64,000 bases of DNA, from positions 3,162,001 through 3,226,000 of the forward strand of contig NZ_CP091036.1 in assembly GCF_021535135.1 (NCBI RefSeq), given 5' to 3'. This document shows positions 1,882-61,061 of this stretch, piece by piece (the first letter of the stretch is position 1; the number at the start of each line of letters is the position of its first letter). The position numbers and the translations under genes are program-made. The notes below the pieces were generated by a model. That model was given only the letters and a program-made list of their open reading frames with translations, did no database searches and had not been told where the DNA came from. The DNA comes from Antarcticibacterium sp. 1MA-6-2. GTDB lineage: Bacteria; Bacteroidota; Bacteroidia; Flavobacteriales; Flavobacteriaceae.

Positions 1882-2345
1882 CTAATTTAAATTCCGCTTT
1901 TCAATAAAAAATCTCTTTAATAAAGCAGATGATTCATTCTCAAGTACACCTAGGCCTTAACAAGGGTTTTTGGGTGAAGAGATGTACCCATGCTGCGATA
2001 TCCCCTTTCATGATCTGTAGCCCCAAAAACCAGCCTGGTCAACTGGCTCCAATACAGGGCTCCGGCACACATCTGGCAGGGTTCCAGAGTGACGTAGAGG
2101 GTGCAGTCTTTGAGGTATTTTCCGCCTAAAAAGTTGGCAGCGGCTGTGATAGCCTGCATTTCAGCATGGGCGGTAACATCATTTAAAGTTTCTGTTAGAT
2201 TATAGCCGCGGGCAATAATGCGATCCTTAATTACTACCACTACGCCCACGGGAATTTCTCCTTTTTCATAAGCAAGATCTGCTTCAGCTAAAGCCTTCTG
2301 CATAAAATAAGTATCATCTGGAGGATTGATCTTCATATAACCCAT
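1882..2345 (-). CDS. tadA: tRNA-specific adenosine deaminase TadA (frameshifted near C-terminus)
   Basis: Zinc-dependent nucleoside deaminase that should convert A34 to inosine in tRNA-Arg. The N-terminal 131 residues show the zinc ligands and catalytic Glu in HAEM (after NDVTA) and the PCQMC motif (LEPCQMCAGAL), plus the RGYRSMG region typical of TadA. The open frame stops at a TAG (1950-1952). Skipping two bases there restores a C-terminus (GVLENESSALLKRFFIEK...) that ends at 1882-1884, the usual length for the family. The stop sits where a Gly codon GGT is expected. As tadA is normally essential, a sequence error is more likely than true loss. A free cytosine/guanine deaminase is a less likely alternative. 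Confidence 0.82.
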
Positions 2346-2454
2346 CTTTGCTGAAAGATAAAAATATCCTTAGAGTTACGAAAAGTATTTACAAAAGGAA
2401 TTGGATCCAGGAATTTTAAATTGTGGAATTTCAGAAAACTGTACCTTTGTTTCT

Positions 2455-4231
2455 ATGGCTGAAAGAATTTTAAACAAGATCAATTCTCCGGCAGAACTGA
2501 GGCAGATTCCGCAGGAAAAATTACCTCAACTTGCAGCCGAATTAAGGAAGTTTATCATTGAAATTGTTGCCACAAAAGAAGGACATTTAGGTGCGAGTTT
2601 GGGAGTCGTGGAATTAACTATCGCTCTTCATTTTACCTTCGATACTCCTATGGACCTGCTCGTTTGGGATGTGGGCCATCAGGCATACGGGCATAAAATC
2701 CTTACAGGAAGAAGAGACATTTTTCATACTAACTTACAACTCAACGGGATTAGCGGATTTCCTAAAAGGAGCGAAAGTGAATATGACACCTTTGGCACTT
2801 AGCCATTCTTCCACATCAATTTCAGCAGCACTGGGCATGGCTCTGGCTTCTGCGTTGGAAGGGGATTTTGAAAAACATCACATTGCGGTAATTGGCGATG
2901 CTTCCATCGCCAGCGGGATGGCTTTTGAAGGCCTGAACCATGCCGGAGTGACAAAGGCAAATCTCCTGGTGATCCTCAATGATAATGCTATTGGGATTGA
3001 CCACAGCGTTGGGGCATTAAAACAATATCTTACAAAAGCCCGGGTAGGCCACAAACCTGCCCAGGATAATATCATTGAAGCCTTAAATTTTCAATATTTT
3101 GGTCCGGTGGATGGCCATGATATTCCCAGCCTGATCAATACCTTTGAGGATCTTAAGAAGATAAAAGGGCCAAAATTTCTTCATGTCATTACCACTAAAG
3201 GCAAAGGATTAAAAAAAGCTGAAGAGGATCAGGTAAAATACCATGCTCCCGGAAAATTTGTCCCCGATACGGGAGAACTTTTAGCTTACGAAACAGATGG
3301 CCTACCTTTAAAATACCAGGATGTCTTCGGGCTTACACTAGTAGAACTTGCCCGCAAGAATAATAAGATCATTGGGATTACTCCCGCAATGCCTACAGGT
3401 AGCTCCTTAAAATATATGATGGAGGCCTTTCCTGAAAGGGCTTTTGATGTGGGAATTGCTGAGCAACATGCCGTGACTCTGGCTGCAGGTATGGCTACGC
3501 GGGGTTTCATTGTCTATTGTGCAATCTATTCTACCTTTCTTCAAAGAGCATATGATCAGGTAATTCATGATGTTGCCTTACAAAATCTCCCTGTGATCTT
3601 CTGTTTAGATCGTGCAGGACTGGTGGGAGAAGACGGTGCAACTCATCACGGGGTTTTTGATATTCCCTATTTAAGGTGTATTCCAAATATAACAATTGCC
3701 GCACCTTCAAATGAAATTGATCTCAGGAATTTACTTTTTACGGTCCAGGAAAACTTAAGCGGTCCCATAGCAATAAGATATCCCCGTGGAAGAGGAATTA
3801 ACGTAAACTGGCGGGAACCTTTTAAGAGGATAGAAATAGGGAAAGGAGAACAGCTGAGAGCTGGGGACAAAATTGCTGTAATAAGCATAGGCAGTATTTG
3901 CAAAAACGTTGAGCTAGCTATTGAATCCTCATTTTTAGCAGGTCAAATTTCACATTTTGACGCAAAATTTGTTAAACCTCTGGATGAGAGACTTCTTCGG
4001 AAAATATTTGATAAATTTGAAAAAATTCTCACGGTAGAGGATGGAGCAGTTATGGGAGGTTTTGGAAGTGCCGTTTTAGAATTTGCTGCTACCCATCAAT
4101 ATACCGGAAAAATTAAATGCCTGGGAGTCCCTGATGAGTTTATTGAACAAGGAAATATGGAGCAATTATACAAAATTTCAAAAATTGACGTTCATAGTAT
4201 AGCAGACTCAATAAGTGAGCTCCTTAAATAA
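2455..4231 (+). CDS. dxs: 1-deoxy-D-xylulose-5-phosphate synthase (frameshifted)
   Basis: Thiamine-diphosphate enzyme that condenses pyruvate and glyceraldehyde 3-phosphate to DXP, the first step of the MEP isoprenoid pathway. Visible are the N-terminal [13 protein letters not shown] motif, the GDA...LNDN ThDP/metal-binding motif (about residues 145-175), the central pyrimidine-binding segment with GIAEQHA, and the transketolase C-terminal domain. The first frame ends at a TAG at 2800-2802, exactly where the conserved Gly of GHSSTS should be. Homology resumes one base later with [14 protein letters not shown] chose ATG 2455 because homology begins there. The gene has one lesion and is otherwise full length (about 590 aa). 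It is followed after 21 bases by a DUF3078-like gene on the same strand. Confidence 0.9.
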
Positions 4232-4252
4232 TGTTTTAGGCCAATAGAATTA

Positions 4253-5287
4253 ATGTTAGACAAGTTATTTTACCCTACCATCTTTTTTACCGTTCTTTTC
4301 ATTTCCATTAGTTTTTCCGGGTTTGGAAAAAATATGAGGATAATCAGGTTAGATACTACAAGCAGGGATACTGTAAAGGTAGATTCAGTAAATATCGATT
4401 CTGTGGCAAATGAGCCGCAAGAGGTAATAATCTACTGGACCAATAAAAATGCAGTAGGGGTTAATTTTAATGAAGTAGCCTTTGTTAACTGGAATGCCGG
4501 GGGTAACAATTCAATATCTGCACTTTTTCACGGAAATTTTGAGAGAAAATATCAAAAGAAACTTTTGTCCTGGAAAAATAATGCATCAATTCGATATGGA
4601 ATAAATGCGCAGGAAGGCCGGGAATTACGAAAAAGTGAAGACCAAATAGCTATTAATTCCACTTTTGGTTACAGGAGAGATTCAGTTTCTAATTTTCGAT
4701 ATTCAGCAAAATTTAATTTTAATACCCAGTTTGCCAATGGTTATCGTTACCCAGATACAGAGAGGCCTATTTCTAAATTCATGGCTCCGGGATACATGTT
4801 CCTGGGTATAGGAACAGAATATACCCACCCAAAGGAAGATCTTACTCTCTACCTATCACCTATAACCCAAAAATCTACCTTTGTTTTGGACAGGACACTT
4901 GCTAATGAAGGAATGTTTGGAGTAACACCAGCAATACGAGATGAAGAGGGTAATATCGTTGAAGACGGGGAGAAGGTGCGAACGGAATTTGGGGTGCTTT
5001 TCACCAGTGGTTATACCAAAAAGATCTTTGAAAATATAAATCTTGATAACCAGTTAAGTTTATATTCAGATTACCTAAATCGTTTCGGAAATGTTGATGT
5101 AGACTGGCAACTGAATGTAAACATGGTCGTGAATAACTTTGTTAAAGCCAGTATAGGTTCTCACCTTCGTTATGATGATGATGTCAAGGTAAAAGAAGAT
5201 CTTGACGGAGACGGAGATTTAGAGACTCTGGGACCACGAATTCAATTTAAGCAAATGCTTGGAGTGGGAGTGGTCTATGAATTTTAA
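4253..5287 (+). CDS. DUF3078-like outer-membrane protein
   Basis: Intact 344-residue protein with an N-terminal signal sequence (hydrophobic segment at residues 5-24) followed by a beta-rich mature part. The repeated pattern NWNAGGNNSIS, alternating aromatic strands and a C-terminal strand ending VGVVYEF fit a small outer-membrane barrel of the Bacteroidetes DUF3078 family. No enzymatic motif is visible. It begins 21 bases after dxs, so the two are probably cotranscribed. A perfect palindrome lies just downstream. The family assignment rests on overall pattern and the typical dxs neighbourhood; its function is unknown. Confidence 0.7.
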   Translation: MLDKLFYPTIFFTVLFISISFSGFGKNMRIIRLDTTSRDTVKVDSVNIDSVANEPQEVIIYWTNKNAVGVNFNEVAFVNWNAGGNNSISALFHGNFERKYQKKLLSWKNNASIRYGINAQEGRELRKSEDQIAINSTFGYRRDSVSNFRYSAKFNFNTQFANGYRYPDTERPISKFMAPGYMFLGIGTEYTHPKEDLTLYLSPITQKSTFVLDRTLANEGMFGVTPAIRDEEGNIVEDGEKVRTEFGVLFTSGYTKKIFENINLDNQLSLYSDYLNRFGNVDVDWQLNVNMVVNNFVKASIGSHLRYDDDVKVKEDLDGDGDLETLGPRIQFKQMLGVGVVYEF

Positions 5288-5298
5288 GTTGAAGTTTA

Positions 5299-5331
5299 AG
5301 ACCTCACAGGTTTTAAAAACCTGTGAGGTCT
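5299..5331. terminator. Perfect palindrome between convergent genes (bidirectional terminator)
   Basis: Two arms, AGACCTCACAGGTTTT and its near-exact inverse, form an uninterrupted hairpin between the convergent ends of the DUF3078 gene and the dGTPase gene. The A/T centre and flanking T/A runs allow termination in either direction. Palindromes of this type recur between convergent genes in Flavobacteria. Confidence 0.6.
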
Positions 5332-5356
5332 AAGGAAAACCGTTAAACTGCAGAAA

Positions 5357-6704
5357 TCAAATCTTCAAGCCTTTGTATCTTTCAAAAGAAGCTACGGTAA
5401 ATCCATCTGTAAGAGAGGCAGTATAGGAACAAATCTCCAGCAGCGAATTGTACACAGAGTTTCCTGAAATCTCAAGTTTTGGTGCCGATCTTCTCACCAG
5501 TTTATTATAATTTGAATCTTCCTCCTCAGCGTTTTCCGGCAAGAATGCATGGGTATAGGTGTCCAGCAAATGGGAAAGCATTTTATACCCAGCAATTTCT
5601 TTGTTGATCACTTCCTCACTTTGGTAAATTCTTTCGACACTTATCTTGATAATGTCTTTTATCTGCGCCTCATAACTACTTTTGTCAAAAAGGGATTCGT
5701 GGAATTCTCCTTTTAAGATTGCCTCCTCATTTTTCAGAAATAATTCAACTGCTTCAGTAATAAGGGTATTAATGGCTAATGCACGTAAATAGCTAAGTCT
5801 GTCAGCAGTATTTGTAAGAGCATTGTATTTTGCTGTATTAATACTGTTCTTAACTAACTTTATGAGGTACTCCAGTGCATATTCCTCATCTATTAATCCC
5901 AAATTTATTCCGTCTTCAAAGTCTATAATAGTATAGCAAATATCATCTGCCGCTTCTACCAGAAATGCCAGAGGATGTCGGGCAAAGGCAATGTTTTTAC
6001 CTGAGCGTACTTCCACTAATCCCAATTCCCGGGCTACCTCGTTAAAAATTGCCTTTTCGGTTTGAAATACTCCAAATTTTTTATCGCCAATATTCCTGGT
6101 GGGTTTATGCGGAAGAGATTCTTTGGGATATTTAATAAATGCTCCAAGAGTGGCGTAAGATAACCGGATACCACCTTCTATCCCCGGTCGGGTTTGGGTA
6201 AGGATCTTGAAACCGTTAGCATTCCCTTCAAATTTTATAAGATCCTGATATTCCTGCTCGCTTAATTGTTCCCTGAATCTCTTACCTCTACCAAGGCTGA
6301 AGTATTCTCCAATTGCCTTCTCCCCGGAATGCCCAAAAGGTGGATTTCCTATGTCGTGAGCAAGCGCCGCTGCAGCGACTATTGCCCCAAAATCGTTCAT
6401 CTGGTAACCGTGAATGGTGTTGAGGTGCGGGTGTTTCTCCAGTATCTTTTGACTTAGCCAGCCTTCCTAAAGATCGCCCGACAACCGACACTTCCAAACT
6501 ATGAGTAAGTCGGGTATGTACAAAATCTGTCTTAGAGAGCGGAATTACCTGGGTCTTGTCCTGTAAGCTTCTAAATGCTGAAGAAAAGATGATCCTGTCG
6601 TAGTCTACTTCAAACCCCAGCCGGGTTTCGTTTTGTTCTTTCCGAAGTCTTTTATTCCTGTCTCCAAACCTTTTCAGGGAAAGGAGTTGTTCCCAATTCA
6701 TCAT
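5357..6704 (-). CDS. dgt: Deoxyguanosinetriphosphate triphosphohydrolase-like protein (frameshifted)
   Basis: HD-superfamily dNTPase that cleaves dGTP (or other dNTPs) to nucleoside and triphosphate. The metal-binding residues are visible: RLTHSLEV supplies the first His, and ALAHDIGNPPFGHSG supplies the His-Asp pair and downstream His. The first 80 residues and the last 347 are in different frames. The break is near 6455, where the plus strand reads ACTTAGCC and ACTGGCC would restore the frame, one of several similar lesions in this window. Length after repair is about 448 aa, normal for the family. It is convergent with the DUF3078 gene. Confidence 0.85.
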
Positions 6705-7307: not shown

Positions 7308-9752
7308 TTATGAACCACACATTAAACAATCGTCCCCTTCAGCTTCTTTAGATTGCGCTATTAAAGTACGCAACTCCTCCGGAGAAAGAGATCCCGAATC
7401 TGGTTCGACATTCACTGGTGCCGCTTTGGGCGTGGAAACTGAAACAGGCTCACTGTAGGTTGTTACCAGTTCTTTCTTCTCTTCTTTTTTCAATGTAAAT
7501 TTTATAGCGTCTACAGCACTCTTTGTTCTTAAATAGTACATTCCTGTTTTAAGTCCGCTTTTCCAGGCGTAGAAATGCATAGAGGTGAGTTTACTGAAGT
7601 TCGCATTTTCCATAAACAGATTGAGGGATTGCGACTGATCGATAAAGTATCCGCGATGACGGGACATATCAATAATATCTTTCATACTCAATTCCCAGAC
7701 CGTTTTATAGAGTTCCTTTAGATCCTCCGGAATAATATCTATGTTTTGAACAGATCCATTTGCACGTAAAATAGCATCTTTCACTTCTTCTGTCCATAAA
7801 TTGCGCTCTACAAGATCTTCCAGTAAGTGTTTGTTAACGACAATGAATTCTCCCGATAGTACTCTACGGGTATATATATTTGAGGTATAAGGCTCAAAAG
7901 CTTCATTGTTTCCAAGTATTTGAGAGGTGGAAGCTGTGGGCATTGGTGCTACAAGAAGGGAGTTTCGTACTCCATTCTTTAAAACCTGTTTCCTTAGTTT
8001 AGCCCAGTCCCAACGGCCACTCAGTTCTTCATCCTTAATTCCCCAAAGGTTATATTGAAACTGTCCTTTGCTTATTGGAGAGCCTTTATAGGTAGAATAG
8101 GGACCTTCTTCTTTTGCCAATTCCATAGAAGCCGAAACAGCCGCAAAATAAAGCGTTTCAAAAATCTCCTGGTTCAGTTGTTTTGACTCATCACTGGTAA
8201 AAGGCATTCTCAATTTAATGAATGTATCTGCCAAACCCTGTACACCCAGACCTACTACTTAGGTGTCGCATATTGGAATTTTCAGCTTCTTTAACAGGGT
8301 AGTAATTTCTGTCTATAACCCGGTTTAGGTTTCGAACTACACGTTTGGTGATTTTAAAAAGTTCTTTGTGATCAAATTCGTTTCCCTTAACAAACATCGG
8401 TAGTGCTATGGATGCAAGGTTACAAACAGCAACTTCGTCAGGACTGGTATATTCCAGGATTTCAGTACAAAGATTTGAAGAACGAATGGTTCCTAAATTT
8501 TGCTGATTAGATTTCCTGTTGGCTGAATCCTTATAGAGCATATAGGGCGTTCCTGTCTCAATTTGAGATTCCAGGATCTTTTCCCATAATTCCCGCGCTT
8601 TTATAGTCTTACGGCCTTTTCCTTCTGCTTCGTACTTTAGATAAAGTTCTTCGAACTCGTCCCCGTGAATGTCGTAGAGTCCCGGGCATTCGTTCGGGCA
8701 CATCAGGGTCCAGGTAGAATCTTCTTCTACTCTTTTCATGAATAGGTCCGGGATCCACATGGCATAGAAGAGGTCACGGGCGCGCATTTCTTCTTTTCCG
8801 TGGTTCTTTTTAAGATCCAGAAAATCAAAGATATCAGCGTGCCAGGGTTCTACGTAAATTGCGAAGGAGCCTTTTCGTTTTCCGCCACCCTGGTCAACAT
8901 ACCTGGCGGTGTCATTAAATACCCTTAACATGGGTACAATTCCGTTTGAAGTACCATTCGTTCCAGAAATATAAGAGCTTGTAGCTCTCACATTGTGAAT
9001 AGATAATCCTATTCCGCTTAAGCAGATTGGGAAATTTTTGCGGTTTGTTTCAGCGTGTCATAAATCCCGTCAATACTGTCGTCCTTCATCGTAAGAAGAA
9101 AGCACGATGACATTTGAGGTTTTGGAGTTCCGCTGTTGAAAAGTGTTGGAGTAGCGTGGGTAAAATATTTCTTGGACATGAGCTCATAAGTCTCCAATGC
9201 CGCTTCAATGTCGTTAAGGTGAATACCTATAGAAACCCTCATCAGCATATGTTGAGGACGTTCTGCGATATTGCCGTTAATTTTAAGAAGATAAGATCTC
9301 TCCAGGGTTTTAAATCCGAAGTAATCATATCCAAAATCCCTGTTGTAGATGATTGTGGAATCCAGGATCTCTTTATTTTCCTGAACAACATGAAAAACTT
9401 CATCTGAAAGTAAAGGAGCTTTCTCTCCTGTGCGTGGATTCACATATTCATAAAGGTCTGTCATGACCTCAGAAAATGTCTTTTTTGTATTCTTGTGTAA
9501 GTTTGAAACAGAGATACGTGCTGCAAGACGGGCATAATCGGGATGAGCAGTGGTCATTGTAGCCGATACTTCTGCTGCCAGGTTGTCAAGTTCACTGGTG
9601 GTTACCCCATCATACAGGCCTTCAATTACTCTCATGGCAACCTTAAGAGGGTCAACCATTTCATTAAGACCATAACATAATTTTCGTATTCTGGCGGTAA
9701 TCTTGTCAAACATGACAGGCTCCTTACGGCCGTCTCTTTTCAGTACATACAT
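7308..9752 (-). CDS. nrdA: Class I ribonucleotide reductase, alpha subunit (two frameshifts)
   Basis: Large subunit that reduces ribonucleoside diphosphates to deoxyribonucleotides. Visible are the N-terminal ATP-cone (starting [18 protein letters not shown]), the active-site region [11 protein letters not shown], the [25 protein letters not shown] segment with catalytic Asn/Cys/Glu, and the redox-active C-terminal CLMC tail. The frame breaks twice. At 9018-9020 a TAA replaces the first Gly of the conserved AGGIG motif (net +2). Near 8259-8262 the region between NSNMRH and VGLGVQ (read as [11 protein letters not shown] in the repaired frame) carries a CTTAG on the plus strand and one extra base. 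Reconstructed length is about 813 aa, normal. nrdB lies just upstream in the same direction, so this is an nrdBA operon. Confidence 0.92.
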
Positions 9753-11240: not shown

Positions 11241-11241
11241 A

Positions 11242-12807: not shown

Positions 12808-13775
12808 TTATTTTTCCAAAACCCCGTTTTGGGGAACAGTAAAAGTTTTTAGCATGTTTTTATCTATAGGATTAGGCACCTCTGCAATAAGAGCGTAGTT
12901 TCCAGGTGTCAGGGTAACGGTAAAATAGGAGGTATTTCCGGCAGGCATTTCCTGCGTTCCCCCTAAAAACTCTACACCTTGTGGAGCCGGAGTTTTAAAA
13001 GCTTCAGGATCTGCCCAGTTCATCCAGTTGTTAAGGTCCTTAATGCTATTTTCGTCCTTTAAACGTACCAGGTGCACATCATGACCTATGAAATGTTCAT
13101 GTGCTATTTGATCTTTAAAATTTACAGCAAAAGTATGTTCACCCGGCTGGATCTCATCTTTAAAAGCAATACCTAATTCTGAAGAAATTGTAATGGTATC
13201 CCGGGCTATTGGTTTTCTCCTGTTGTTATTTGCGGGCAAAACATCGAGTTCTGCAAGCATTCCCATTGCTGAATGAAACATTCCGTTTGGCATTTTTACA
13301 TAACATTCAATCACATATTTTCCGGGTTCCAGGTTTACAGTGGTTTGGGCGGTGCCGGAGGGTGAAATAAGACCTGCTCCTCCTGTAAAAACAACATCAA
13401 AGAACCAGGTGGGGAGCTTGTTAAATTCAGCAAAACCCTGTTCCGTGTTCCCGTTATTAATCTGGTTCATCGCAGTTGTAAAACCAGTATAATTTCGGCT
13501 CGCGTATCTTCAATAGTCCTGCCTGCAGGCATTTTCTCAAGTACAAAGAAATGTACATCGGGCGAAAGATTTTTGTACTTAAAAGTTGTCCAGCCTGAAG
13601 GAATTTCATTGGGAAGCTCAAAATTCATTCCTGTGGAAACAATTTCTACCACAGGAACCTTTTCCCCGGAATGATCCTCCTGAAAAGGAGCAGCAAAAAT
13701 ATTATTCGTAAAAATTAAAAAAACTAAACCTCCAATAAACAGGCTTTGCTGGTAAAAAGTGACAATTAATCTCAT
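12808..13775 (-). CDS. Secreted protein of unknown function (frameshifted)
   Basis: Reading starts with a signal sequence (hydrophobic segment at residues 7-28, then FAAPFQEDH). The first 100 residues join the second reading frame after restoring one T near 13483, giving EI-TGFTTAMNQINNGN. The mature protein, about 295 aa, has three similar beta-rich segments, each with a GKY or GNY turn (for example EPGKYVIECYVKMPNGMFH and TPGNYALIAEVPN), which suggests repeated cupredoxin-like or Ig-like folds. Met and His are frequent, so metal binding is possible, but I see no complete copper site. I do not recognise the family. Confidence 0.6.
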
Positions 13776-19492: not shown

Positions 19493-21870
19493 ATGATTCA
19501 AAAATTAAGCTTTTTCATTCTTCTTTTAACTTCCTTTTCTTACTCCCAAACCTCCGGCATTTCGGGAAAAATTACCGACAGTTCAGGGGATGGAATTCCA
19601 TTTGCAACGGTTTATATTGCCGATCTTGAAATGGGAAGTGCGGCAGATGCTGATGGAAATTTCAGTATAACCAATATTCCTTCCGGAGAATGGAAAGTGC
19701 AGATAAGAGCAGTGGGATATGCCACAAAAACTGCTGCCATTTCTATAAACGCTTCAGAAAAAATGTCTGTAAATTTCCAGCTGAAGGAGGATGAACTGGA
19801 AGAAGTTGAAGTATTCGGAAACAGGTATAAACATCCCGATAAAATTGAAGCTTTAACCCGTCTTCCGCTGGAACCCTATGAACAAATTCAAAGTATTTCT
19901 GTAATATCGGGAAAACTTATAGAAAATCAGGGAGCTTTAAGCATTTCCGAAGCTACTAAAAATGTACCGGGAGTTTATACCTTCGCCACTTACGGCAATA
20001 AACGGGAAAGTATGTCCTCCCGTGGGTTCCGCGGAATCCCAATTCTTAAGAATGGAGTGAGGGTACATTCCGATTTTCGCGGAACAGGAATTCTAACCGA
20101 TATGCAGGGGGTGGATAATATTCAGGTTTTAAAAGGTGCTGCATCAGTCACCCAGGGAGTTGCAACAGATCTTGGAAGTCCCGGCGGAGTAATAAACATA
20201 GTTACCAAAACCCCAAAATATTACTTTGGGGGAGAAATCTCTACAAGATTCGGAAGCTACGGACAGGTGCGACCTACATTTGATGTGTTTGGACCCATTA
20301 ACGATTCTGAAACTGTGGCTTTCCGTTTAAATGGAGCTTTTGAAAATGGGGAGAGTTTTAGGGAAGGAGTTTCCAGGGAACGGTTCTATCTCAATCCTTC
20401 CCTGCAATGGCGAATGACGGAAAATACCACTATAACTCTAGAAATGGACTATTTTGATGACAGCCGAACTCCTGATCTTGGTACCGTGAATATTGGAGAA
20501 AATGATGTGAATGCTATTTACGATCTTCCGCACGATATTTTCCTGGGATATGAAGATGACCGTTCCATTACACGTAATTCAACTTATGCAGTTCGGGTAG
20601 ATCACTCCCTCAACAATTATTTAAGTTTAAAAGGAGCATTTTATAGATCAAACCTGGCTTTGGATGATAAAGGTGCCAGCCTGGGAGATGTGGTTGAGCA
20701 GGATGGGGAGCTAGTGTACAACCTGCGCAACCGTGGTTACAGTGTCTCCACCCGTAGTGACATCAACAGTGTGGTGCAGCTGGATCTTATAGGAAATGAG
20801 CTCAAAACCGGAAACCTTACTCATACTTTCCAGGTGGGAGTAGATTACAGGACTACAGATTTTAGTACCTTTTCCCGGAGTGCAAATAATATTGATATAA
20901 TTGATGTTTTCGATCTTAATAACAATCCTATTACCTGCAAACTTTGAACTGGGTGTTGCAAGAGAAGGAGCCGGGGAATCTAAAGCAATAGGTTTGGTGG
21001 CGCAGGATGTGATCACCTTTAATTCGTGGCTTAAAACCTTTTTCGGACTTCGCTACAGTTCTACAGAGGCTATTACCGAAACAGAAACAAACCGCAGCGA
21101 TGCTATAAATCCTCTGGGAGGAATTGTGCTTTCTCCGTTTAAGAATATAAATTTCTTCGCCTCTTACACTAACAGTTCTTATCCCCGTACCGCCTCAAGG
21201 CTAAGTGAGAATGGAGAGGAGCTTGGCAATGAGCGATATGATCAACTGGAAGCGGGTATTAAAACAAACTGGCTGGATAACAGGCTTAGGTTTAACCTTA
21301 CCTTATTTAAAATTAACAACAGGGATATTAATCTCCCTGTATATGACGAGAACTGGGTAGCTACAGGTTTCTATCAAAAAGGAGGGAACGATCAACGACA
21401 GGGAATTGAAGTAGAATTAACGGGCCGTGTTCTTCAAAATCTTGAGGTAATTACGGGGTATTCCTATATAGATGCGCAATACAAAGAGCATACTTCCTAC
21501 GTGTATGGGTCGGCCCCGCTTAATACTCCAAAACATACATTTAATGTATACAGCAACTATTTCTTCCAGGGTAGTCTGGAAGGGCTTTCATTGGGAGGAG
21601 GAGCCTATTATACCGGGGAACGGCCAATCAACGACTGGAGCGCAGGTCCCGTAACTCACGAAGGTATTGTCCCTAATCAGGAACCTTTTTATGTAGATGC
21701 TTATACGATGCTTAATTTTCAGGCAGGTTATAAGTTTAATGAACACTGGAGCACCCGTTTGCTTGCAAGTAATGTTTTAAACACGGTAGGTTATAATGCT
21801 TACAGGACCAGCTATATAAATCAAACAGATCCACGTACTTTTGCTTAAGCGTTCTAACCTATACATTTTA
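19493..21870 (+). CDS. TonB-dependent siderophore receptor (two breaks)
   Basis: Outer-membrane receptor of about 790 aa. It has a signal peptide, a carboxypeptidase-regulatory-like domain (ISGKITDSSGDGIPFATVYI), a plug domain with NVPGVYTFATYGN and SSRGFRGIPILKNGVRV, and a 22-strand barrel. The frame breaks near 20935 (after DLNNNPIT) and again at 21846-21848. There a TAA interrupts the penultimate strand; skipping two bases gives GVLTYTF and a proper aromatic C-terminus at 21870. The plug pattern fits ferric-siderophore receptors. The following PepSY membrane protein, a common partner in ferric-siderophore uptake or reduction, supports iron acquisition. Confidence 0.85.
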
Positions 21871-33511: not shown

Positions 33512-36500
33512 CTATCCAACAGCTAATTTTTGACTTTCCTTTAAAATATAAGTAAGCATAGGCTCAAGAAGCCTCCATTCTACACTCATAGGTTTTGCAC
33601 CTTGCGATTTTATAAATTCTGTTTCTCCCAAGAAGGTATAGGACATTGTAAAACCATATTCATCTACATTTTGTTCCCTTACGAAAAGTAAAATTTTCTT
33701 TCCAATATTCTTATGCTGGATGTAAGATTCTCCTTTTGGAGATTGGGGGGAGATGCTATTTTGTGACTGCCAGTGGAAAAGCGTTTTATTCACGGCATAA
33801 TCCTCATACATGGTAGTCGGGGAATATTCTTTTTCAGTTTTCTTAAGTGTCACAAATAATGCCTCCACACTCAGTTTCTTATTGAAAGCAGATCCTTCCC
33901 GATTTGAAGATTTTTTGCTGAAGGTGCTCATTCCAATTGAGGCTAGGATTTCCTCTCTATTATATCTGCTATGGAGTTTTAATGGGAATGAGAAACCTAA
34001 ATCAATCTCTTTCTCAACGAATTCAATTTTGTTTATTTGATGTTCAGTGAATTCCCGCATCTCTTGGAGCATTATTGGATTTTTCTTAAGAGATTCAATA
34101 CTTTCTTTTACATTAAAAAAATTGAGTTTTGTTCCCGCTTCTTGCCATATGTCATAATGGAACATTAGAAGCATAATCTCTTCTTCTTTGCTTAGCAAAT
34201 CCAATTTGTAAGTGGGAGAAATTACTTTTTGAATAAATTTTAAGTAACTAAGGGAGTTGCAGTACATAAGCTTCTTTTGCATACAACTGGTAAGCTCTTT
34301 CTCTTGAGGTTCATCAAAATCTGGGATTGCCTTTGCATCTACACATAATCGTTTCCAGCTCCCTTTCCTGTAAATTTGCCGGATTTCAAGATGATGAAAT
34401 TCTAGAAAATTATTCAATGTAAGCGGGAGAGTTGAATGATGTTTAAACTGCTGGATTTTAAGTAAAAGCTGAGGTCTTCTAAATTCTGTAGCTTCTCTAA
34501 TATTTTTTAAAATTACTTCCTTGGCTTTTTTCTCGAGTACAATAGAACATCCTAATGGTAAATGAGGAAATTCGTCTTCAATTTCTTTAATTATAGAAGT
34601 ATGGGTTTTGCCTACAAGTGCTCTAAACTTATGTTCAAAATCGTATTCTGGACGGGCATTTCCAACAAAATCTAAAACCGTCAGACAGTCTTTATTTTCT
34701 GCTAGTCTCAGGCCACGGCCTAATTGCTGCAGAAACACCGTCAAACTTTCTGTCGGTCTGAGGAAAAGAACCGTATCTATATTAGGAATATCAACACCTT
34801 CATTAAATATGTCTACCACGAAGAGATAGTTTATTTCCTTTTTCAGGAGTTTGTTTCTAATTACATCCCGAGACGAACTATTACTACTAACCAAATAATC
34901 TGCTTTTAGATTTGCTATTGCAAATTTCTCTGCCATATACCTTGCGTGCTCTTGGCTTACACAAAAACCTAGCGCTTGTACATCGTGAACATCGGTTAAA
35001 TATTCTTCACAGTTATGAATGATATCCGATACTCTTCTATCATTTTCTGTATACAATTTGGTTAGTTCATTGATTTCATATTTACCATTTCTCCAATTGA
35101 CATCGGATAGATCAATTGTATCTGAAAGAGCAAAATATTGAAAAGGACTTAAGAGCTTTCGATTTAAAGCTTCTGGCAATCGTATTTCTGCAGCAATTTT
35201 GTAGTCAAAATCTTCTGCAATATCTCCACCGTCCATTCTTTCGGGTGTGGCTGTTAACCCTAATAGAATTTGAGGACTAAATCTTTTTAGAATTGGTCGG
35301 TAGCTATCTGCTATAATGTGATGAACTTCATCAATAATTATATAATCATAAAATTCAGAACCTAGTTCTAATTTTTTTAAACGATTATTTAAAGTTTGGA
35401 CTGAAGCAAAAATTTGATCATAACTTACAGGTTCATTTCCATCAACCCATAACTCTCCAAAATTTGCATCACGAAGCACATGCTGAAACGTGATTTGAGC
35501 TTGTTGTAATATTTCTTTTCGATGAGCAACAAATAAGAATTTTGCCGATGGATTTTGTAAATAGAATCTTTTAAAATCAAATGCAGAAATTACTGTTTTT
35601 CCAGTTCCCGTGGCTGCGACCAAAAGATTTTTCCATCTGTTATGCACTTCTCTTTCAGATTGTAATTTTGCTAAAATCTCCTCCTGATAGGGATAGGGTT
35701 TTAAATCAAAAAAAGTTGTTATTTGATTAGTGCCGTATGAACTTTGTCTTTTAAGAGCGCTACTTAATTTTTCCCGATCTTTTCCCTTTTCGTAAAATTC
35801 AAATTCTGGATCTTCCCAATAGGTCTCGAAAGTTTTTTTAAACTTATCGATTATGTGGCCAATTTCCTGAGTTGTTACTTTTAAGTTCCATTCCAAACCA
35901 TTTGTGAGAGCAGAACGCGAAAGATTTGAAGAACCAATATAGCTAGGTATGAAAACCAGAATTTCTAAGGAATAAATAAGCTTTTGCATGTAAACGTTCG
36001 TGTTCAGAATTGTAAGAAACTTTAATTTCAGTATTTGGTAAAGAGGATAGATATTCTACAGCTTTTACATCTGTGGCTCCCATGTAGGAAGTGGTGATAA
36101 TTTTTAACTTTCTTCCGCTATTTGTAAACTCCTCAAGCTCCTTCTTAAAAATTCTGATTCCTGAATATTTTATAAACGAAACCAGCCAGGAAATTTCATC
36201 AGATGATAAAATTTCCTTTCTTAATTCACTTTCCAGTGAGATACCTACATTATTTCCTGTGAATAATTCGCTTTGACTTAACCTGGTATAAGGAGTGATT
36301 TCCTTTAATCTAGACTCCAAATTGGAATACGGAAAATCGAGCTTAGAGAATACAGCTTGTAAAATTTTCCCTTCGGCTTCAATTAAATTCTCTGATAGAT
36401 CAAGATTCTTTAACTCTGTTGCTAAAAGCTTTATGATCTTATTAGACAGCTCTATTTGAAGTAAAGGACGATCCTTTTCTTTAATTTCATTAAGAGCGTA

Positions 36501-36659
36501 TTTAATAGTTTCAGCTAAATAAATGCTCAAATGCTGTGAAGCCTCCTCTTTGTCCAGAGTCGTTTCACTTATGTGAAATTTCTGAGAGTCAACTAAACTT
36601 AATTTATTAGCTACGAGTTTGTTTATTAACTGTTCGTATAATCCTGTTTCAAAACTCAT
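33512..36659 (-). CDS. PLD-nuclease/DEAD-box helicase with DUF3427 domain (frameshifted)
   Basis: About 1,048 aa. The N-terminal part ends in a phospholipase-D-like nuclease motif (HAKAYLFLRNSGFHT, then YIGSSNLSRSAL). A superfamily-2 helicase follows with motif I ATGTGKT, II DEVHH, III TATPER and VI QLGRGLRLA, and then a long C-terminal DUF3427 region. The frame breaks at 35943-35945: a TAG stands where a Gly codon is expected between FHT and YIGSS, adding one base. The start overlaps the stop of the NUDIX gene (ATGA), and the HNH gene follows two bases after. Such PLD-helicase-DUF3427 proteins are likely anti-phage or DNA-processing factors; the exact role is not established. Confidence 0.85.
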
Positions 36660-37226: not shown

Positions 37227-37996
37227 ATGTATAAAAAGAACCTGATACTTTTATTGATCATTTTTATTCCATCTCTTATGCTCGGGCAGTATGGAGAAAC
37301 CATTCGTACAGGAAGACCGGGGCAGGCTATAGGAGCCTTTGCTTTGGGTAGTAAAGTTTTTCAGGTGCAAAGCGGGCTTACTTATAACCGTTTTGAAGAT
37401 GCTGCCGGGAATGAGAACAGTACTTATATGAACAACAATGTATTCCGGCTGGGGATATGGGAGAAATTTGAAGTCAGCGGTGTGGTGGGTTATCGTATTG
37501 CTGAAGAAGCTCCCCTTACCGGAAACAGGATCCGCGGGGTGAGCAACACCCAGATAGGTGCCAGATATAATATCCTGGAGCCAAATGGCGCTATACCCGC
37601 ACTGGGATTACAGGGCCGGGTGCTGCTTAAGTTTCAGAAATAGGAATTCCGCAGAGAGAGTCTGGGAAGCCAGTTTCTATTGTCTGCCGGAAACAAAATC
37701 ACCGATTGGGTCGGCTACACTGCCAACTTCGGACTTCTATGGCCGGGGAACGGAGAGGGACCAATAGAACTTTACGTTTTCAACCTCGGCTTTAGCCTTA
37801 CCGACAGAATAGGAACTTTTGTGGAAGTCTATGGAAGACTGGAAGATTTTACTGCCAATTATGATACCTAGGTTTATTTTACCTGGTGAATAAGGATCTT
37901 AGGCTGGATGTTTCTGCAGGTTGGCAGGGGAGGGATAACCTGGACAACTGGTTTGTAGATGCAGGTTTTTCCTGGCGCTTCGACTGGAGGGGGTGA
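37227..37996 (+). CDS. Outer-membrane barrel protein, transporter-like (two stops)
   Basis: Signal peptide (MYKKNLILLLIIFIPSLMLGQ) followed by a beta-barrel of the type annotated as meta-pathway phenol degradation/transporter-like proteins (GAFALGSKVFQVQSGLTYNRFE, EKFEVSGVVGYRI). The frame contains an in-frame TAG at 37641-37643 (KFQK stop EFRRESLGSQFLL) with no shift. A second TAG at 37869-37871 replaces a Gly codon GGT and adds two bases; the restored end reads LVNKDLRLDVSAGWQGRDNL and stops at 37994-37996. Repaired length is about 256 aa, with a C-terminal FSWRFDWRG strand. Specificity unknown. Confidence 0.65.
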
Positions 37997-38644: not shown

Positions 38645-39395
38645 CTAATGATCGTGGTAAGCAGTTTCTGATTTCTGTTCCAGGTAAGCGGAAGAAATAC
38701 TTTCTGCTTCAGGTTTGGGAGAGGGTTCAAAAGAAAAGGCAAATTTTACCATTCCTGCCAGTCCTGAGACGTAGAAAATTCTGCTAAAATAATAGAAACT
38801 ATCGGCTTTTAAATAAACCGCGGCAAAAGCAGTAAGATCTGAAAGCAGAAGGCCCAGGGTGCCCAAAAGAAAGAAAAGAGCAGAGGAATCTGTTTTTCTC
38901 TCATAGTAGCTTAGGGCTGTGATGAGGCAGGTGATAATGGCCACCCCGTGAAAATAAAAAAAGATAAGGTGCTGGATTCCTTTGATCTCACTGCTGAAGG
39001 TAAGCCCAAAGAACAGCAGGATCATAAAACAAAGCGCTGAAGCTATGACAATATAGTTTTTCTGAAACCTAGCTCCATTGTTCCTTTAGGGTTCCTCTTG
39101 TGACGAACAGGCATAAACTGGAGAATGCGATGCCATGAAAAATAAAATATCCGTCCTTTGACGATTCCAGCTGATAGCTAAGAGTAAAAATATCTGCAAT
39201 TAAGAAAGAAATTAAAGCGCCTGCAAGTAACCGGGTTTCTCGAGAAAACTTTGGAAGATAGGTACCCAGAAAAACGGCAGCGGTGAGTAATCTTATCCAC
39301 CTGCTTTGTGGTATGCTAAACCAGCCGATAAAAATGAGGTTAAGTATAATGAGAAAGATGGCCAGAGCCATAAATGAAATAAGGGGGAATTTCAT
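38645..39395 (-). CDS. YhhN-like multi-helix membrane protein (frameshifted)
   Basis: Two adjacent open frames (108 and 126 aa) combine into one protein of about 249 aa with seven to eight transmembrane helices. The first ends at a TAG (39069-39071) directly after TLKEQWS. Skipping one base gives FQKNYIVIASALCFMILLFFGLTF, a natural helix, so the break is an indel, again where a Gly codon GGG is expected. The topology and size resemble the YhhN (lysoplasmalogenase-like) family, but I cannot identify its active residues. Confidence in one gene is higher than in the family name. Confidence 0.6.
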
Positions 39396-42822: not shown

Positions 42823-44044
42823 ATGCAAGATTTATTATCCGTTCTCTTCTATGTGAGAAAAAGTAAAGAACAAGATGCTATACACGCAACTGTATATTTA
42901 AGAATTACTTATAACGGCCAACGGTCAGAAACCAGCACTATGCGTAGAGTTCCAATAGCTAAATGGAATGCAAAAGCAAATAAAGTGGGAGGATCTTCTA
43001 TTGAAGCACGGCAGGTAAACCGTCACCTGGATATTATTAAGAACAATGTATATGACAGTTATCAAAGGTTGCTGGAGAAAAAAGAAGCAATAACTGCGGG
43101 AAAAATTCGTGATGAGTATTTGGGCAAAAGCGATTCCGAGAGGAATATAATTCAACTTTTCGAGGAGCATAATTTGAGGATGAAAAAATTAGTTGGAAAA
43201 GAATTTTCTTTTCGCACACTCCAGAGGTACAACACAACAAAAAAACATCTGACAGCTTTTATTCTTAGTTCCTATAAGAAAAAGGATTATCCGGTTGAGG
43301 ATATTGACACCCAATTTATTAATGCCTTTATCTACTATCTCAAAACAGAGCTGGATCTTACCCATAATTCTGCATTAAAATATTTAGCCTACCTGAAGAA
43401 GATTGTTCGGGTTGCTTTTGCCAATGGGTGGATGGAGAAAGATCCCTTTTATAATTTTAAATTAAAGAACCAGTCTATTGACAGGGATTTCCTAACAAAG
43501 GAAGAGATTGTAAAAATAATGGAGCAGGATTTTTCTATCCCAAGATTAGAACATGTAAGGGATGTTTTTGTCTTCTCGTGTTTCACGGGATTAGCCTATT
43601 CTGATGTTGAAAAACTTTCAGAAGATGATGTAATAAAAGGGATTGATGGAAATTTGTGGATTAAGATTAAAAGGACCAAGACCAAATCCCTTAGTAGTAT
43701 TCCCGTACTTCCTGTTGCACAAAGTTTAATTGAGAAATACCAGGAAGTAAAATTTCCTAAAGGAAAATTGTTGCTTAGTTTATACCAATCAAAGAGTCAA
43801 TAGTTACTTAAAGGAAATAGCAGACCGTTGCGAGATTAAAAAGAACTTAACCTTCCATATGGCCCGTCATACTTTTGCGACGACTGTCACCCTCTCAAAT
43901 GGTGTCCCTATTGAATCGGTAAGTAAAATGCTGGGCCACCAGTCTATTAAAATAACTCAGCATTATGCAAAAGTTCTGGATAAGAAATTAAGTGAGGATA
44001 TGGAGATACTGAGAAAGAGAATAGAATTGAATGGGGACAGGTAA
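42823..44044 (+). CDS. Tyrosine recombinase, Bacteroidetes integrase type (frameshifted)
   Basis: About 406-residue integrase with an N-terminal arm-binding domain (LSVLFYVRKSKEQDAIHATVYLRITYNGQR), a SAM-like core-binding domain, and a catalytic domain. The box-I region reads CFTGLAYSDVEKL, where the usual first catalytic Arg is replaced by Ala, as in many Bacteroidetes integrases. His-x-x-Arg appears as HMARHTFAT and the terminal His/Tyr as LGHQSIKITQHYAKV. The frame breaks near 43776 (KGKLLL...VYTNQRVNSYLKE); a TTAG there replaces a TGG-like sequence. It lies just inside tRNA-Leu and probably integrates the island. Confidence 0.87.
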
Positions 44045-50756: not shown

Positions 50757-53700
50757 ATGAAAAAAACTTTACTCATCTTAATTCCCTTATTGCTTTTTCA
50801 GTTTGCTTAGCTACAGTCAGGAGGCAATGATCTCTGTAACTGGAACTGTCTTAGATGAAGAAACGGGTGTCCCACTTCCAGGTACAAACATTGTTGAGAA
50901 AGGTACTTCGAATGGAGTTATGACAGATTTCGATGGAAACTTCGAAATCGATGTACCTGCAAATGCGACCCTGGTAATTTCCTATATAGGCTATAAGTCT
51001 TCTGAGGTCGAGGTTCAGGGAAAGTCGAGGGTAGAAATAGCATTGACGCCTGATTCGGCCACCCTCGATGAAGTAGTTGTAGTAGGTTATGGTACCCAGA
51101 AAAAAGTAAACCTCACAGGTGCTGTGACTACCGTTGATTCAGAGGTTCTTCAGTCAAGACCCGTACCTAACGTGAGCCAGATGCTTCAAGGCGTAGTACC
51201 TGGATTAAATTTTCAAACATCAGGTTTGGGAGGGGAACTCAATAGTGGTCTTAGCTTCAACATCCGGGGTTCTGGTACAATTGGTACGCTTCCAATTCTG
51301 CTCCATTAGTTTTAGTAGATGGTATGGAAGCAGATTTGGATGCAATTAATCCTCAAAACATTGAATCTATTACTGTATTAAAAGATGCAGCAGCTTCTGC
51401 AGTATATGGTTCCAGGGCCGCCTTTGGGGTTATTCTTGTTACTACAAAAGATGGTAAAACCGGTACTCCCACCATTAACTATAATAACAACCTTAGGTTT
51501 ACGTCCCCCCTTCACGTACCAAATATGATGGACTCTCATACATTTGCTTTGTATTGGAATGAGGCTGCTGACAATTCAGGTCAGGGCGCTCCCTTCTCAC
51601 AAGAAGTGATTGAGAGAATAATTCAATATCAGGAAGGTGAAATTGATTATGGTACAGTGCCTAATGCGAACGGGGATAGATATCAGTATTATACTGGTTC
51701 TAACGCAAACACAGATTGGTTTGATGAACTTTATAAGGATTATTCTTTTTCACAGGAACATAATTTAAGCCTGAGTGGAGGTAATGAGAAAACAACCTAC
51801 TACACCTCTGCAAGATTTTTAGATCAGGGAGGATTACTCGCTTATGGAGAGGATCGATTGGAAGATTATGACTTCAGTGGAAAACTTAGAACGGAAATAA
51901 CAAAGCACGTAAGTTTTAACTCCAGTACAAGGTTTTCAAGAAGAAACTATAATAAACCAACCCAGCAAAATGATTTGTTTTATCATAATATAGCCCGTAG
52001 ATGGCCTACCGTACCAGTTCGAGATCCAAATGGGAACTTTGGCGATGCTTCCGGAGAAATTCCTCAACTAGTGCAGGGAGGACGTACGGATGATCTTACA
52101 GATAGATTATATATGCAAGGACAGTTGACTATCACACCTCTCACAGGGTGGAATATTTATGCCATCGGTAATTATAAGATTACAAATGTCAATCATCATT
52201 CAGATGTGCTTCCGGCTTTTGCTTATGATGTGGCGGGAAATCCCTTTCCTGTTGCCGTGGGATGGAATTCACCAGGCTATAGCTATGTTTACGAGTACAA
52301 CCGTAAAGAAGATTATTTCAGCACAAACATTTACACGGATTATTCTTTTGATTTAAATGAGGCGCATAATTTTAAAGTTATGGCTGGATATAATTCAGAA
52401 TTAACGAAGTACAGAACAATAGGTGCTTCAAGGAGTGGCTTAATTACTCCTGACCTTCCTACTCTAAATACTGCTACGGATGAAAGCAGAGCAACTGAAG
52501 GACAGTATCAGCATTGGTCAGTAGCAGGTTTCTTTAGTAGGTTAAATTATAACTACAAAGAAAAGTACCTGCTTGAATTGAATGCAAGGTATGATGGGTC
52601 CTCCCGCTTCATTGGTGATAAGCGCTGGAATCTCTTTCCTTCTGTATCGGCTTATTGGAATATTGCTAATGAGAATTTTTGGAACTGGGACGAGGCTATA
52701 CAAATGTTTAAGTTAAGAGGCTCATATGGGGAACTGGGGAATCAGAATACAAGTAACTGGTATCCTTTTTATCAATCCATGCCTGTTGGAACCGCCAACG
52801 GAGGTTGGTTGCTAAACGGCGAAAAACCGAATACAGCAGGTGCTCCAGGTTTAGTTAGTTCTTTGCTTACCTGGGAAAAAGTAACCAGTTGGAACGTAGG
52901 TTTGGATATGGCTCTCCTAAAGAACAGGTTAAATTTTACTGTGGAATATTTTAATAGAAGAACCCTGGATATGGTAGGTCCTGCTCCCCAGTTGCCAGTG
53001 GTTTTGGGAACAGGAGTGCCACGAATTAATAATGCAGATATGGAGTCAAAGGGTGTTGAGCTTGAAATTAACTGGAGAGATCAAATAGGGGATTTTCGAT
53101 ATAGTGTAAGAGGAATTATATCAGACTCCCGCCAGAAAATTTTAAGTTATCCAAATCCTACAAATAGTATTGGGGATTGGTACAACGGTAGAGAAATGGG
53201 CGAAATCTGGGGATATACCACAATAGGAATTGCCCAAACAGATGAGGAGATGGAGAACCATCTGGAAAATACCAGCCAGAGTCAATTAGGTAGTAACTGG
53301 GAAGCTGGAGATATTATGTATGCTGATTTAAACGGGGATGGAGAAATTAATTCTGGAAACGGAACTTTAGAGGATACAGGAGATTTAACAATTATAGGAA
53401 ATTCAACTCCCCGCTATAGATTTGGAGTGGATTTGAGCGGTGATTTCAAAGGATTTGATTTTAGAATTTTTTTACAGGGCTTTGGAAAGAGAGAGTACAT
53501 GCCAAACGGCCCTTATTTTTGGGGAGCTAATGGAGGTATGTGGCAATCTGCGGGCTTTGAGGAACATATGGATTTCTTTAGAGATGAAGATTCCCCAATG
53601 GTGCAGGCGGGTCTCGCAGAGGAAAATCCTAATGCTTATTTCCCCCGCCCAATGTTTGGTAGTGGGAAGAATCAACAAACCCAAACGCGTTACCTTCAGG

Positions 53701-55921: not shown

Positions 55922-55922
55922 T

Positions 55923-59122: not shown

Positions 59123-59387
59123 GTAATAGGTGGATAAGTGAGATAAATATAAATTTTAAGACTATTTAATTTTAAAATACATTATAAATCCAAGAATAAA
59201 TTTATAATGTATTAATTTGTTTAGTTTTTTTATTTTTCGAAATAGCCATTTTGTTATTCATCTATGCTGAAGCGCAGAATGTTAATCGCCTTTTAAATTT
59301 GTTACACCAAAAAACTAGTATTGACTTTTTATGATATGCTCCTGTATTACTATTATCAGAAAATGGTAAAGGTTAATTATATATTGT

Positions 59388-61061
59388 ATGCTTAAAATAA
59401 ATCATATTGCTTTAATTTTTTGTTTAACTTAGCTTGCTGTTGTCCTGTAAAAAGAAGAATGAGCTTGAAAAGGAAACTAAAAATAAAAGACCAAACATAG
59501 TTTTCATTATGTCTGATGATCATGCCTATCAGGCGATTAGTGCTTACAGTGACAAACTCACCCACACGCCAAACATTGACCGTATTGCAGTAGGCGGAAT
59601 GTTATTTACCAATGCCTCTGTCACGAACTCAATCTGTGCCCCTTCACGAGCCACTATTTTGACTGGAAAACACACTCACCTCAATGGGAAAATTGATAAC
59701 ATTAGCAAATTTGATACTACCAATGTTACGTTCCCGCAGCTCTTCCAGGACGCAGGTTACCAAACTGCAATGTTTGGAAAATTACACTTTGGGAACAATC
59801 CTAAAGGTTTTGATGAATTTAAAATATTGCCCGGGCAGGGAGATTATTATAACCCTAAATTTATTACAGAAAAGGGAGATACTATAATAAAGGGGTATGT
59901 TACAGATATTATCACCGATCTTACAATAGACTGGCTTGATAACCGCCGGGACGTTAATAAACCTTTTCTACTTATGTATCTTCATAAGGCTCCACATAGA
60001 TCCTGGCTACCTGCGGAAAAACATTATAAAGAGTTCACCCAAAAAGAATTTCCGGTACCCGCCACCCTTTTTGATGATTATAAACGTATTTCCATCACCT
60101 AAGCCCTTCCTCTGGCGATGAACTTAATAAGCAAGGGAGTCTCAATCCTTACAGTACTGCCGCAAAAACGGCTGAGATGAATATTTATAAGCACATGACC
60201 CTGGGGTATGACAATAAACTTTCCCGTGAAGTTATAGAGAAATTTGGTTTAGAGGACATGTTCTATACCACTGGTCCACTTGATAGAATGGATCAGGAAC
60301 AGCGCAGGTCCTGGGACTCAGTTTATGATCCTATTATAAAAGAATTTGAAGAAAAATTTCCCGGGATGAATGACTCTACTTTAATGGTATGGAAATATCA
60401 GCGATACATGCAGGATTATTTGGGTACCATAGCCGGGGTTGACGAAAATGTAGGTCGACTGCTGGATTATTTGGAAGAACAACATCTGGATGAGAATACA
60501 GTAGTAGTGTATACCTCCGACCAGGGATTTTATTTAGGAGAACACGGTTGGTTCGATAAACGTTTTATGTACAATGAATCTTTTAAGACTCCACTATTAA
60601 TCAAATGGCCTAACGTAATCACCGCAGGTACCACCGAAGAAGAAATGGTGCAGAATTTGGATTTTGCCCAGACCTTTTTGGAAATAGCCGGAATAAATGC
60701 TCCCGAAGATATGCAGGGAAAAAGTCTGGTTCCTCTTCTAAAAGGTAAGAAAGAGACGTGGGATAGAGATGCTGTATATTACCATTATTATGAATATCCC
60801 GGAGAACACGCGGTAAAACGGCATTATGGAATAGCCACAAAGGATTATAAACTTATTCATTTTTACTACGACATTAATGAATGGGAGCTATATGATCAAA
60901 AGAAAGATCCCCAGGAGCTGCACAACGTCTATTACGATCCCAGATACGCAGAAGTGCGGGAGGAAATGACGCAAAAACTTAAAGAGATCCGGAAAAAGTA
61001 TAAAGACTCAGAAGAACTTGATAATTATTATATTCAGCTTTATGAAGAAAGGGAGAGATAA
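59388..61061 (+). CDS. Formylglycine-dependent sulfatase, S1 family (two breaks)
   Basis: About 557 aa. Signal peptide and lipobox (LLLSCKKKNE) are restored by bypassing a TAG at 59430-59432 where a Gly codon fits. The metal site RPNIVFIMSDDHAYQ and the sulfatase signature CAPSRATILTGKHTH follow; the Cys is converted to formylglycine by a maturase encoded elsewhere. A TAA at 60100-60102 (after KRISIT) adds two bases. The rest reads PSSGDELNKQGSLNPY, TSDQGFYLGEHGWFDKRFMYNE and PLLIKWP, typical of S1. It removes sulfate esters from the glycan. Confidence 0.9.

What the first reader, a model, noticed from the sequence alone, without database searches (positions are those of the whole stretch)
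1950..60102. Recurrent lesion: TAG/TAA where a glycine codon should start
At least eleven genes on both strands break in the same way: the frame reaches a TAG or TAA exactly where a Gly codon (GGC, GGT or GGG) is expected, with net +1 or +2 bases. Positions: tadA 1950-1952, symporter 1236-1238, dxs 2800-2802, nrdA 9018-9020, TonB receptor 21846-21848, helicase 35943-35945, barrel protein 37869-37871, YhhN-like 39069-39071, susC 50808-50810, sulfatase 59430-59432 and 60100-60102. Related CTTAG/CTA lesions out of phase or on the other strand occur near 6455, 8260, 43776 and 62183. The preceding codon usually ends in C or T, and the change is G to TA, TAA or TAG. Expected Gly is firm for dxs (GHSSTS) and nrdA (AGGIG). 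A shared, rule-like change in unrelated essential genes is not random decay. Systematic consensus error is the most likely cause. Programmed +1 frameshifting is disfavoured by the mixed +1/+2 shifts and the loss of conserved Gly.
Basis: partly seen in the sequence, partly recalled or inferred. Interest (0 to 1): 0.72.

Follow-up and report, generated by a model that had tools for sequence, protein, structure and literature searches.

The report
Sequencing miscalls at methylated RCCGGY sites
The broken genes are very probably not broken in the bacterium: where its DNA should read RCCGGY, a site its own methylation enzyme probably marks, the published sequence seems to have been misread, often adding one or two letters and a false stop.

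Summary
The recurrent lesion is real in the assembly but almost certainly not biology. Its rule is not "Gly to TAR" but loss of one six-base motif, RCCGGY. In 400 kb of this genome RCCGGY occurs once, against 456 and 391 in two congeners; of ten NCCGGN classes only the three RCCGGY ones are near zero. Genome-wide ACCGGC occurs 19 times, against 614-2421 in seven other genomes. Frame breaks run at 38 per 100 kb against 1.9 and 3.1 in the congeners; 57 of 84 carry the motif, and its length minus six predicts the shift in 56 of 57. Two RCCGGY sites of 16S rRNA are altered in all three copies, differently between copies, so recoding fails. The genome carries an NmeDI-like m5C methylase, endonuclease and Vsr; NmeDI is an RCCGGY system. 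Two genomes with homologous methylase and endonuclease keep RCCGGY. Best reading: nanopore consensus error at methylated RCCGGY. Reads and metadata were not available.

The parts
1233..1239 (.). R-lesion-Y string in a sodium:solute symporter gene
   Evidence: Pfam SSF in ORF 454-969 and in 1240-1770; no spanning relative
1948..1955 (.).
   Evidence: 13 of 18 aligned ORFs of relatives in two frames
2797..2803 (.). R-lesion-Y string in dxs
   Evidence: 13 of 17 aligned ORFs of relatives in two frames; Pfam DXP_synthase_N starts inside the domain in the downstream ORF
6452..6458 (.). R-lesion-Y string in an HD-domain gene (dGTPase-like by inference; minus strand)
   Evidence: frame change; HD domain
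8257..8264 (.). R-lesion-Y string in nrdA, second break (minus strand)
   Evidence: frame change against one relative; Ribonuc_red_lgC split between ORFs 8215-8991 and 7308-8234
9016..9023 (.). R-lesion-Y string in nrdA, first break (minus strand)
   Evidence: frame change against one relative; nrdA domains split between ORFs 9018-9752 and 8215-8991
21843..21850 (.). R-lesion-Y string near the C-terminus of a TonB-dependent receptor
   Evidence: barrel domain up to the site; no relative spans it
35942..35948 (.). R-lesion-Y string in the ResIII/DUF3427 helicase gene (minus strand)
   Evidence: frame change against one relative (G006)
37625..37632 (.).
   Evidence: frame break here not tested
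37866..37873 (.).
   Evidence: reading frames either side by eye; Pfam
39067..39073 (.).
   Evidence: reading frames either side by eye
43773..43779 (.). R-lesion-Y string
   Evidence: frame change against one relative, weak on one side
50805..50811 (.). R-lesion-Y string in the leader of a susC-like gene
   Evidence: frames by eye; alignments of relatives begin after it
59427..59433 (.). R-lesion-Y string in the leader of a sulfatase gene
   Evidence: alignments of relatives begin after it
60097..60104 (.). R-lesion-Y string in the sulfatase gene
   Evidence: 35 of 50 aligned ORFs of relatives in two frames
51459..51464 (.). the only RCCGGY left in the 64 kb window

Best explanation
The lesions are consensus errors of a sequence assembled from native DNA by a method that misreads modified bases, almost certainly Oxford Nanopore without effective short-read correction. 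RCCGGY in the cell is probably methylated (m5C) by an NmeDI-like methylase encoded at G000:C1:3.945 Mb. The basecaller, not trained on that modification, returns R-CTTAG-Y, R-CTAAG-Y, R-CTTAAG-Y, R-CCTAGG-Y and similar strings, or same-length substitutions, at nearly every site on both strands. Strings of 7 or 8 letters in place of 6 shift the frame by +1 or +2 and often create TAG or TAA. The genes themselves are intact in the cell. Shown here: loss of RCCGGY and no other CCGG class, the replacing strings, their length/frame relation, the rRNA result and the methylase locus. Inferred: the sequencing platform, the methylation state, and that this methylase is the cause.
For: RCCGGY 1 in 400 kb against 456 and 391, 6 in a second, scattered 400 kb; three of ten NCCGGN classes near zero; ACCGGC 19 genome-wide against 614-2421 in seven others, with TCCGGA within the others' range; 0 of 193 codon-aligned RCCGGY sites of relatives identical here against 31/186, 38/284 and 16/127 for other CCGG contexts. 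Frame breaks 38.0 per 100 kb with two query genomes (36.7 and 34.2 with one) against 1.9 and 3.1 in the congeners; 57 of 84 with R-lesion-Y against 0 of 8; 2.9 expected in random windows, and length minus six matches the shift in 56 of 57. 16S rRNA: both RCCGGY sites altered in 3 of 3 copies, differently between copies. m5C methylase, endonuclease and Vsr in one locus; one methylase homologue is named NmeDIP. NmeDI is an RCCGGY m5C system with a VSR (passages); R.NmeDI recognises RCCGGY (passages). G119 and G152 carry homologous methylase and endonuclease but keep RCCGGY. Nanopore consensus errors at methylated motifs are documented (passages).
Against: No reads, platform metadata or methylation data were seen. 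27 of 84 frame breaks lack the motif; ordinary long-read indels would explain them, but this was not shown. The same cores in other contexts also occur at junctions (RR 17, YY 13, YR 6 of 84, against RY 57); some of these overlap RY strings. Only part of the roughly 200-400 RCCGGY expected per 400 kb (other-context mean times the RY ratios of the four comparison genomes) is accounted for by the R-lesion-Y excess; same-length substitutions are seen in rRNA but were not separated from natural variation in genes. One of 57 junctions breaks the length rule. The form of the miscall is not explained. Only two methylase families were searched in the genome, so another methylase could be responsible. 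No direct comparison with M.NmeDI was made.
Confidence: 0.95

Rival explanations
1. Real mutations: the strain truly carries inserted bases at RCCGGY sites, as pseudogenes or through a mutagenic process aimed at the motif.
For: The strings stand in the deposited sequence in genes on both strands and across the genome.
Against: dxs, nrdA and all three 16S rRNA copies are hit at once, and the 16S copies differ among themselves at the same position. RCCGGY is lost almost completely, not decayed in part. Two relatives with homologous methylase and endonuclease keep the sites.
Confidence: 0.02
2. Programmed recoding: ribosomes shift frame, or read TAR, at R-CTTAG-Y so that full proteins are made.
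For: Conserved genes such as dxs and nrdA are affected, so a functional product is expected.
Against: Shifts are both +1 and +2 (39 and 18 of 57) and follow string length; the lesion is also present in 16S rRNA, which is not translated.
Confidence: 0.01
3. Selection against the motif: restriction by the cell's own endonuclease has removed RCCGGY over time, and the frame breaks are unrelated.
For: The genome has a Type II endonuclease gene next to the methylase. The two genomes with homologues have RCCGGY at about 0.8 (G119) and 0.55 (G152) of the mean of the other CCGG contexts, against about 1.1 and 0.85 in G011 and G003 (worked out), so some real avoidance is possible and may add to the loss here.
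Against: Those two genomes still have 55 and 120 RCCGGY per 200 kb, against 1 and 6 per 400 kb here; most frame breaks sit at R-lesion-Y strings whose length offset from six gives the shift; rRNA sites intact in both congeners are replaced by variable strings.
Confidence: 0.02

Closest known systems
Dcm-motif consensus errors in nanopore assemblies (PMC6591954; passages read)
   Same: Native DNA, an m5C motif missing from basecaller training, errors concentrated in one motif.
   Different: Motif is RCCGGY, not CCWGG; here nearly every site is wrong and many errors insert bases.
Modification-mediated nanopore errors, Modpolish (PMC10687267; passages read)
   Same: Low-quality nanopore genomes whose errors centre on a motif tied to a methylase or defence system.
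   Different: Motifs there are GCAGC and GCTGG, in other strains.
NmeDI restriction-modification system of Neisseria (RCCGGY, with VSR; PMC7973814 and PMC4081073, passages read)
   Same: m5C methylase family, adjacent endonuclease, nearby Vsr; one homologue is named modification methylase NmeDIP.
   Different: Found here in a Flavobacteriaceae-like genome; specificity inferred from the missing motif, not measured; no direct sequence comparison with M.NmeDI or R.NmeDI.

Membership tests
Modification-mediated nanopore consensus error | errors concentrated in one short motif, genome-wide, on both strands | tested here: met
   three of ten NCCGGN classes near zero; whole-genome counts; motif frame breaks in genes of both strands, 37 plus and 20 minus; but 27 of 84 breaks lack the motif
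Modification-mediated nanopore consensus error | motif matches the specificity of a methylase in the genome | tested here: inconclusive
   NmeDI-like locus found; specificity taken from the literature on NmeDI, not measured; only PF00145 and PF01555 were searched
Modification-mediated nanopore consensus error | errors vanish in amplified DNA or short reads | not testable with these tools
   no reads available
NmeDI-type R-M system | m5C methylase with adjacent Type II endonuclease | tested here: met
   PF00145/TIGR00675 and PADLOC REase_II PDLC03534 on adjacent ORFs
NmeDI-type R-M system | Vsr in the same locus | tested here: met
   TIGR00632/PF03852
NmeDI-type R-M system | RCCGGY specificity, cuts on both sides of the site | not testable with these tools
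   needs biochemistry
Cfr10I/Bse634I endonuclease family (PF07832) | PF07832 domain in the genome | tested here: not met
   no match in G000
Programmed ribosomal frameshifting | constant shift direction, only in translated genes | tested here: not met
   +1 in 39 and +2 in 18 of 57; same kind of lesion in 16S rRNA

The most novel reading that the evidence does not exclude
The assembly is an accidental methylome map: RCCGGY is methylated in the cell at practically every site, and the few dozen surviving sites (42 ACCGGT and 19 ACCGGC genome-wide; GCCGGC not counted genome-wide) mark places left unmethylated, for example protected by bound proteins or poor substrates. All 18 survivors in the stretches printed have A or T before the R, four of them in copies of one repeat; this fits a flanking-sequence preference of either the methylase or the basecaller.
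Probability: 0.12. Interest if true: 0.35.

Novelty: not a real feature. Interest (0 to 1): 0.2.

Why it matters
By extrapolation from 57 motif-type frame breaks in 221 kb of aligned DNA, this 4.38 Mb assembly may hold about a thousand false frame breaks, and its 16S rRNA copies carry false variants. Pseudogene, essentiality, recoding and 16S-based claims from this genome, and from other native-DNA nanopore genomes with a methylase unknown to the basecaller, need a check. The test used here needs no reads: look for a restriction-site motif that is missing, and for strings whose length offset gives the frame shift.

Tried and rejected
Tried and set aside. GGCC or TGGCCA as the motif: dropped by eye, where intact copies are common. 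The Cfr10I/Bse634I family PF07832 as source of RCCGGY specificity: no match in G000. CCGG to TCAG/CTGA as a general same-length miscall in genes: the strings are enriched in R_Y context, but in codon alignment RTCAGY stands over CCGG in only 1 of 98 places, and RCTGAY mostly over CAGA (44) and CCGA (31) of 132, so natural codon differences are likelier; a same-length change is clear only in 16S copy A. Nucleotide alignment to the congeners gave few usable sites (36 and 37, none identical) and was replaced by codon alignment. A first, looser junction count gave 98 clusters, 69 with a motif; replace it. In one search the printed net shifts were wrong on the minus strand; one search gives them right. 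The first 16S alignment mixed strands and was replaced. The organism and its platform were not identified; one paper search for a guessed genus with nanopore found nothing.

Full report
Setting. The window is G000:C1:3162001-3226000 of a 4.38 Mb single-contig genome. It is a Flavobacteriaceae-like genome: the best NrdB match with an organism name is a Gillisia MAG at 97%, with Christiangramia and others near 91%.

The observation. Relatives' proteins show a change of frame at 9 of 15. For 1236 the SSF domain is found before and after, though the piece directly before it has no Pfam match. nrdA is split into three ORFs whose profile ranges nearly abut. The window holds 39 strings of this kind, 61 per 100 kb, against 27-45 in four other genomes, so a good part of the 39 is natural sequence.

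The rule. Comparing 6-mers in 400 kb of G000 with 400 kb each of G011 and G003, three words stand out as lost: ACCGGC 0, ACCGGT 2 and GCCGGC 0, counting both strands. As RCCGGY this is 1 against 456 and 391; the other CCGG contexts are 334, 321 and 427 against 386/521, 438/402 and 399/477. A second 400 kb scattered over the genome has 6. Of ten NCCGGN classes only the three RCCGGY ones are near zero. Over whole genomes ACCGGC occurs 19 times in G000, against 2421, 1767, 843, 614, 1339, 616 and 1600 in G011, G003, G002, G005, G001, G119 and G152, while TCCGGA is 1408 in G000 within the others' range of 533-3132. ACCGGT occurs 42 times in G000; it was not counted over whole genomes elsewhere. 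At codon-aligned RCCGGY sites of the congeners 0 of 193 are identical in G000, against 31 of 186, 38 of 284 and 16 of 127 for the other contexts.

Frame breaks. With one pipeline, G000 has 84 frame-break clusters in 221,063 aligned bases (38.0 per 100 kb) when both congeners serve as queries, and 72 in 196,206 (36.7) or 57 in 166,619 (34.2) with one. The congeners against each other have 3 in 161,219 (1.9) and 5 in 160,441 (3.1). 57 of the 84, and 0 of those 8, contain an R-lesion-Y string; length-matched random windows give 2.9 on average, at most 7 in 200 trials. The same cores in RR, YY and YR context are near 17, 13 and 6 of the 84. The string's length minus six equals the frame shift in 56 of 57 cases (38 of +1, 18 of +2); one does not fit. 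This says that a six-base word stood there. The Gly rule follows from frame: 291 of 545 RCCGGY sites in long ORFs of the congeners are read RCC GGY.

The rRNA test. The rRNA operon alignment has two RCCGGY sites, both in 16S and intact in the one copy each of G011 and G003 that was aligned. Both are altered in all three G000 copies. At the first site copies B and C have the same 7-letter string and copy A a 6-letter one; at the second all three copies differ. Within 16S only one other short difference separates the G000 copies, near column 1017. rRNA is not translated, so recoding cannot be the reason; three versions of one conserved rRNA site are what an unreadable signal would give.

The probable cause. 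G000 has one PF00145 methylase, at C1:3945020-3946102, and no PF01555 match; other methylase families were not searched. It lies beside a 359-aa ORF and a Vsr gene. The methylase matches TIGR00675 and PADLOC MTase_II (533.6 bits), the 359-aa ORF PADLOC REase_II (437.8 bits) but no Pfam or NCBIfam model, and the Vsr TIGR00632. One methylase homologue (65% identity) is named modification methylase NmeDIP; an endonuclease homologue (78%) comes from the same named MAG on a contig of the same length. Passages read: the NmeDI system contains a VSR and an endonuclease predicted for RCCGGY; M.NmeDI was shown to recognise RCCGGB or in most reported cases RCCGGY; the table gives m5C (PMC7973814). NmeDI cuts on both sides of RCCGGY (PMC4081073). 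No direct comparison with M.NmeDI was made.

Artefact versus avoidance. In 296 sampled genomes of the order the endonuclease occurs in 3: G000, G119 and G152. G119 and G152 carry methylase homologues (63% and 66%) next to the endonuclease (76% and 80%); no Vsr match was found in those two 20 kb stretches. They have 55 and 120 RCCGGY per 200 kb, about 0.8 and 0.55 of the mean of their other CCGG contexts, against about 1.1 and 0.85 in G011 and G003. So some real avoidance is possible where such a system lives, but it does not remove the sites; the near-total loss belongs to this assembly.

Known kind. In a Klebsiella benchmark about 70% of consensus errors of then-current nanopore basecallers lay in Dcm motifs (PMC6591954, passages). 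The Modpolish paper reports low-quality nanopore genomes with errors centred on a motif (PMC10687267, passages). A search for RCCGGY, nanopore, methylation and basecalling gave 828 papers with at least three of the four terms; the ten listed do not hold RCCGGY, so I cannot say whether this motif has been reported.

Limits. No reads or metadata were seen. 27 of 84 frame breaks lack the motif. The share of same-length miscalls in genes is unknown. Platform, methylation and causation by this methylase are inferred.

Noticed in passing
G000:C1:3943520-3947602 (L164): NmeDI-like methylase, endonuclease and Vsr genes beside a tyrosine-recombinase fragment, perhaps a mobile R-M-V cassette; the methylase, endonuclease and Vsr each read as one ORF.
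   Followed up: partly
G000 16S rRNA copies at C1:294068, 2409890 and 4263767: All three copies carry altered strings at two conserved sites and differ there from one another; 16S-based identification from this assembly would be affected.
   Followed up: yes
window 13476-13482, 18318, 62181-62186, about 51288: Frame breaks against relatives without an R-lesion-Y string, perhaps ordinary long-read indels. The symporter frame also changes between 969 and 1002 without such a string.
   Followed up: no
L226 positions 3079, 3519, 5280, 5500 (G000:C1:2401079-2403505): Four copies of one repeat each keep an intact ACCGGC, a cluster among the rare surviving sites; all 18 survivors printed have A or T before the R.
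   Followed up: partly
window 33512-36659: ResIII/DUF3427 helicase gene with a close relative (78%) in one of 20 related genomes searched and only distant matches (about 25-32%) in others; perhaps an accessory or defence gene.
   Followed up: no
G000:C1:3748747-3749615: A dxs-like paralogue matches in three short pieces in G000; it may be broken too, not checked.
   Followed up: no
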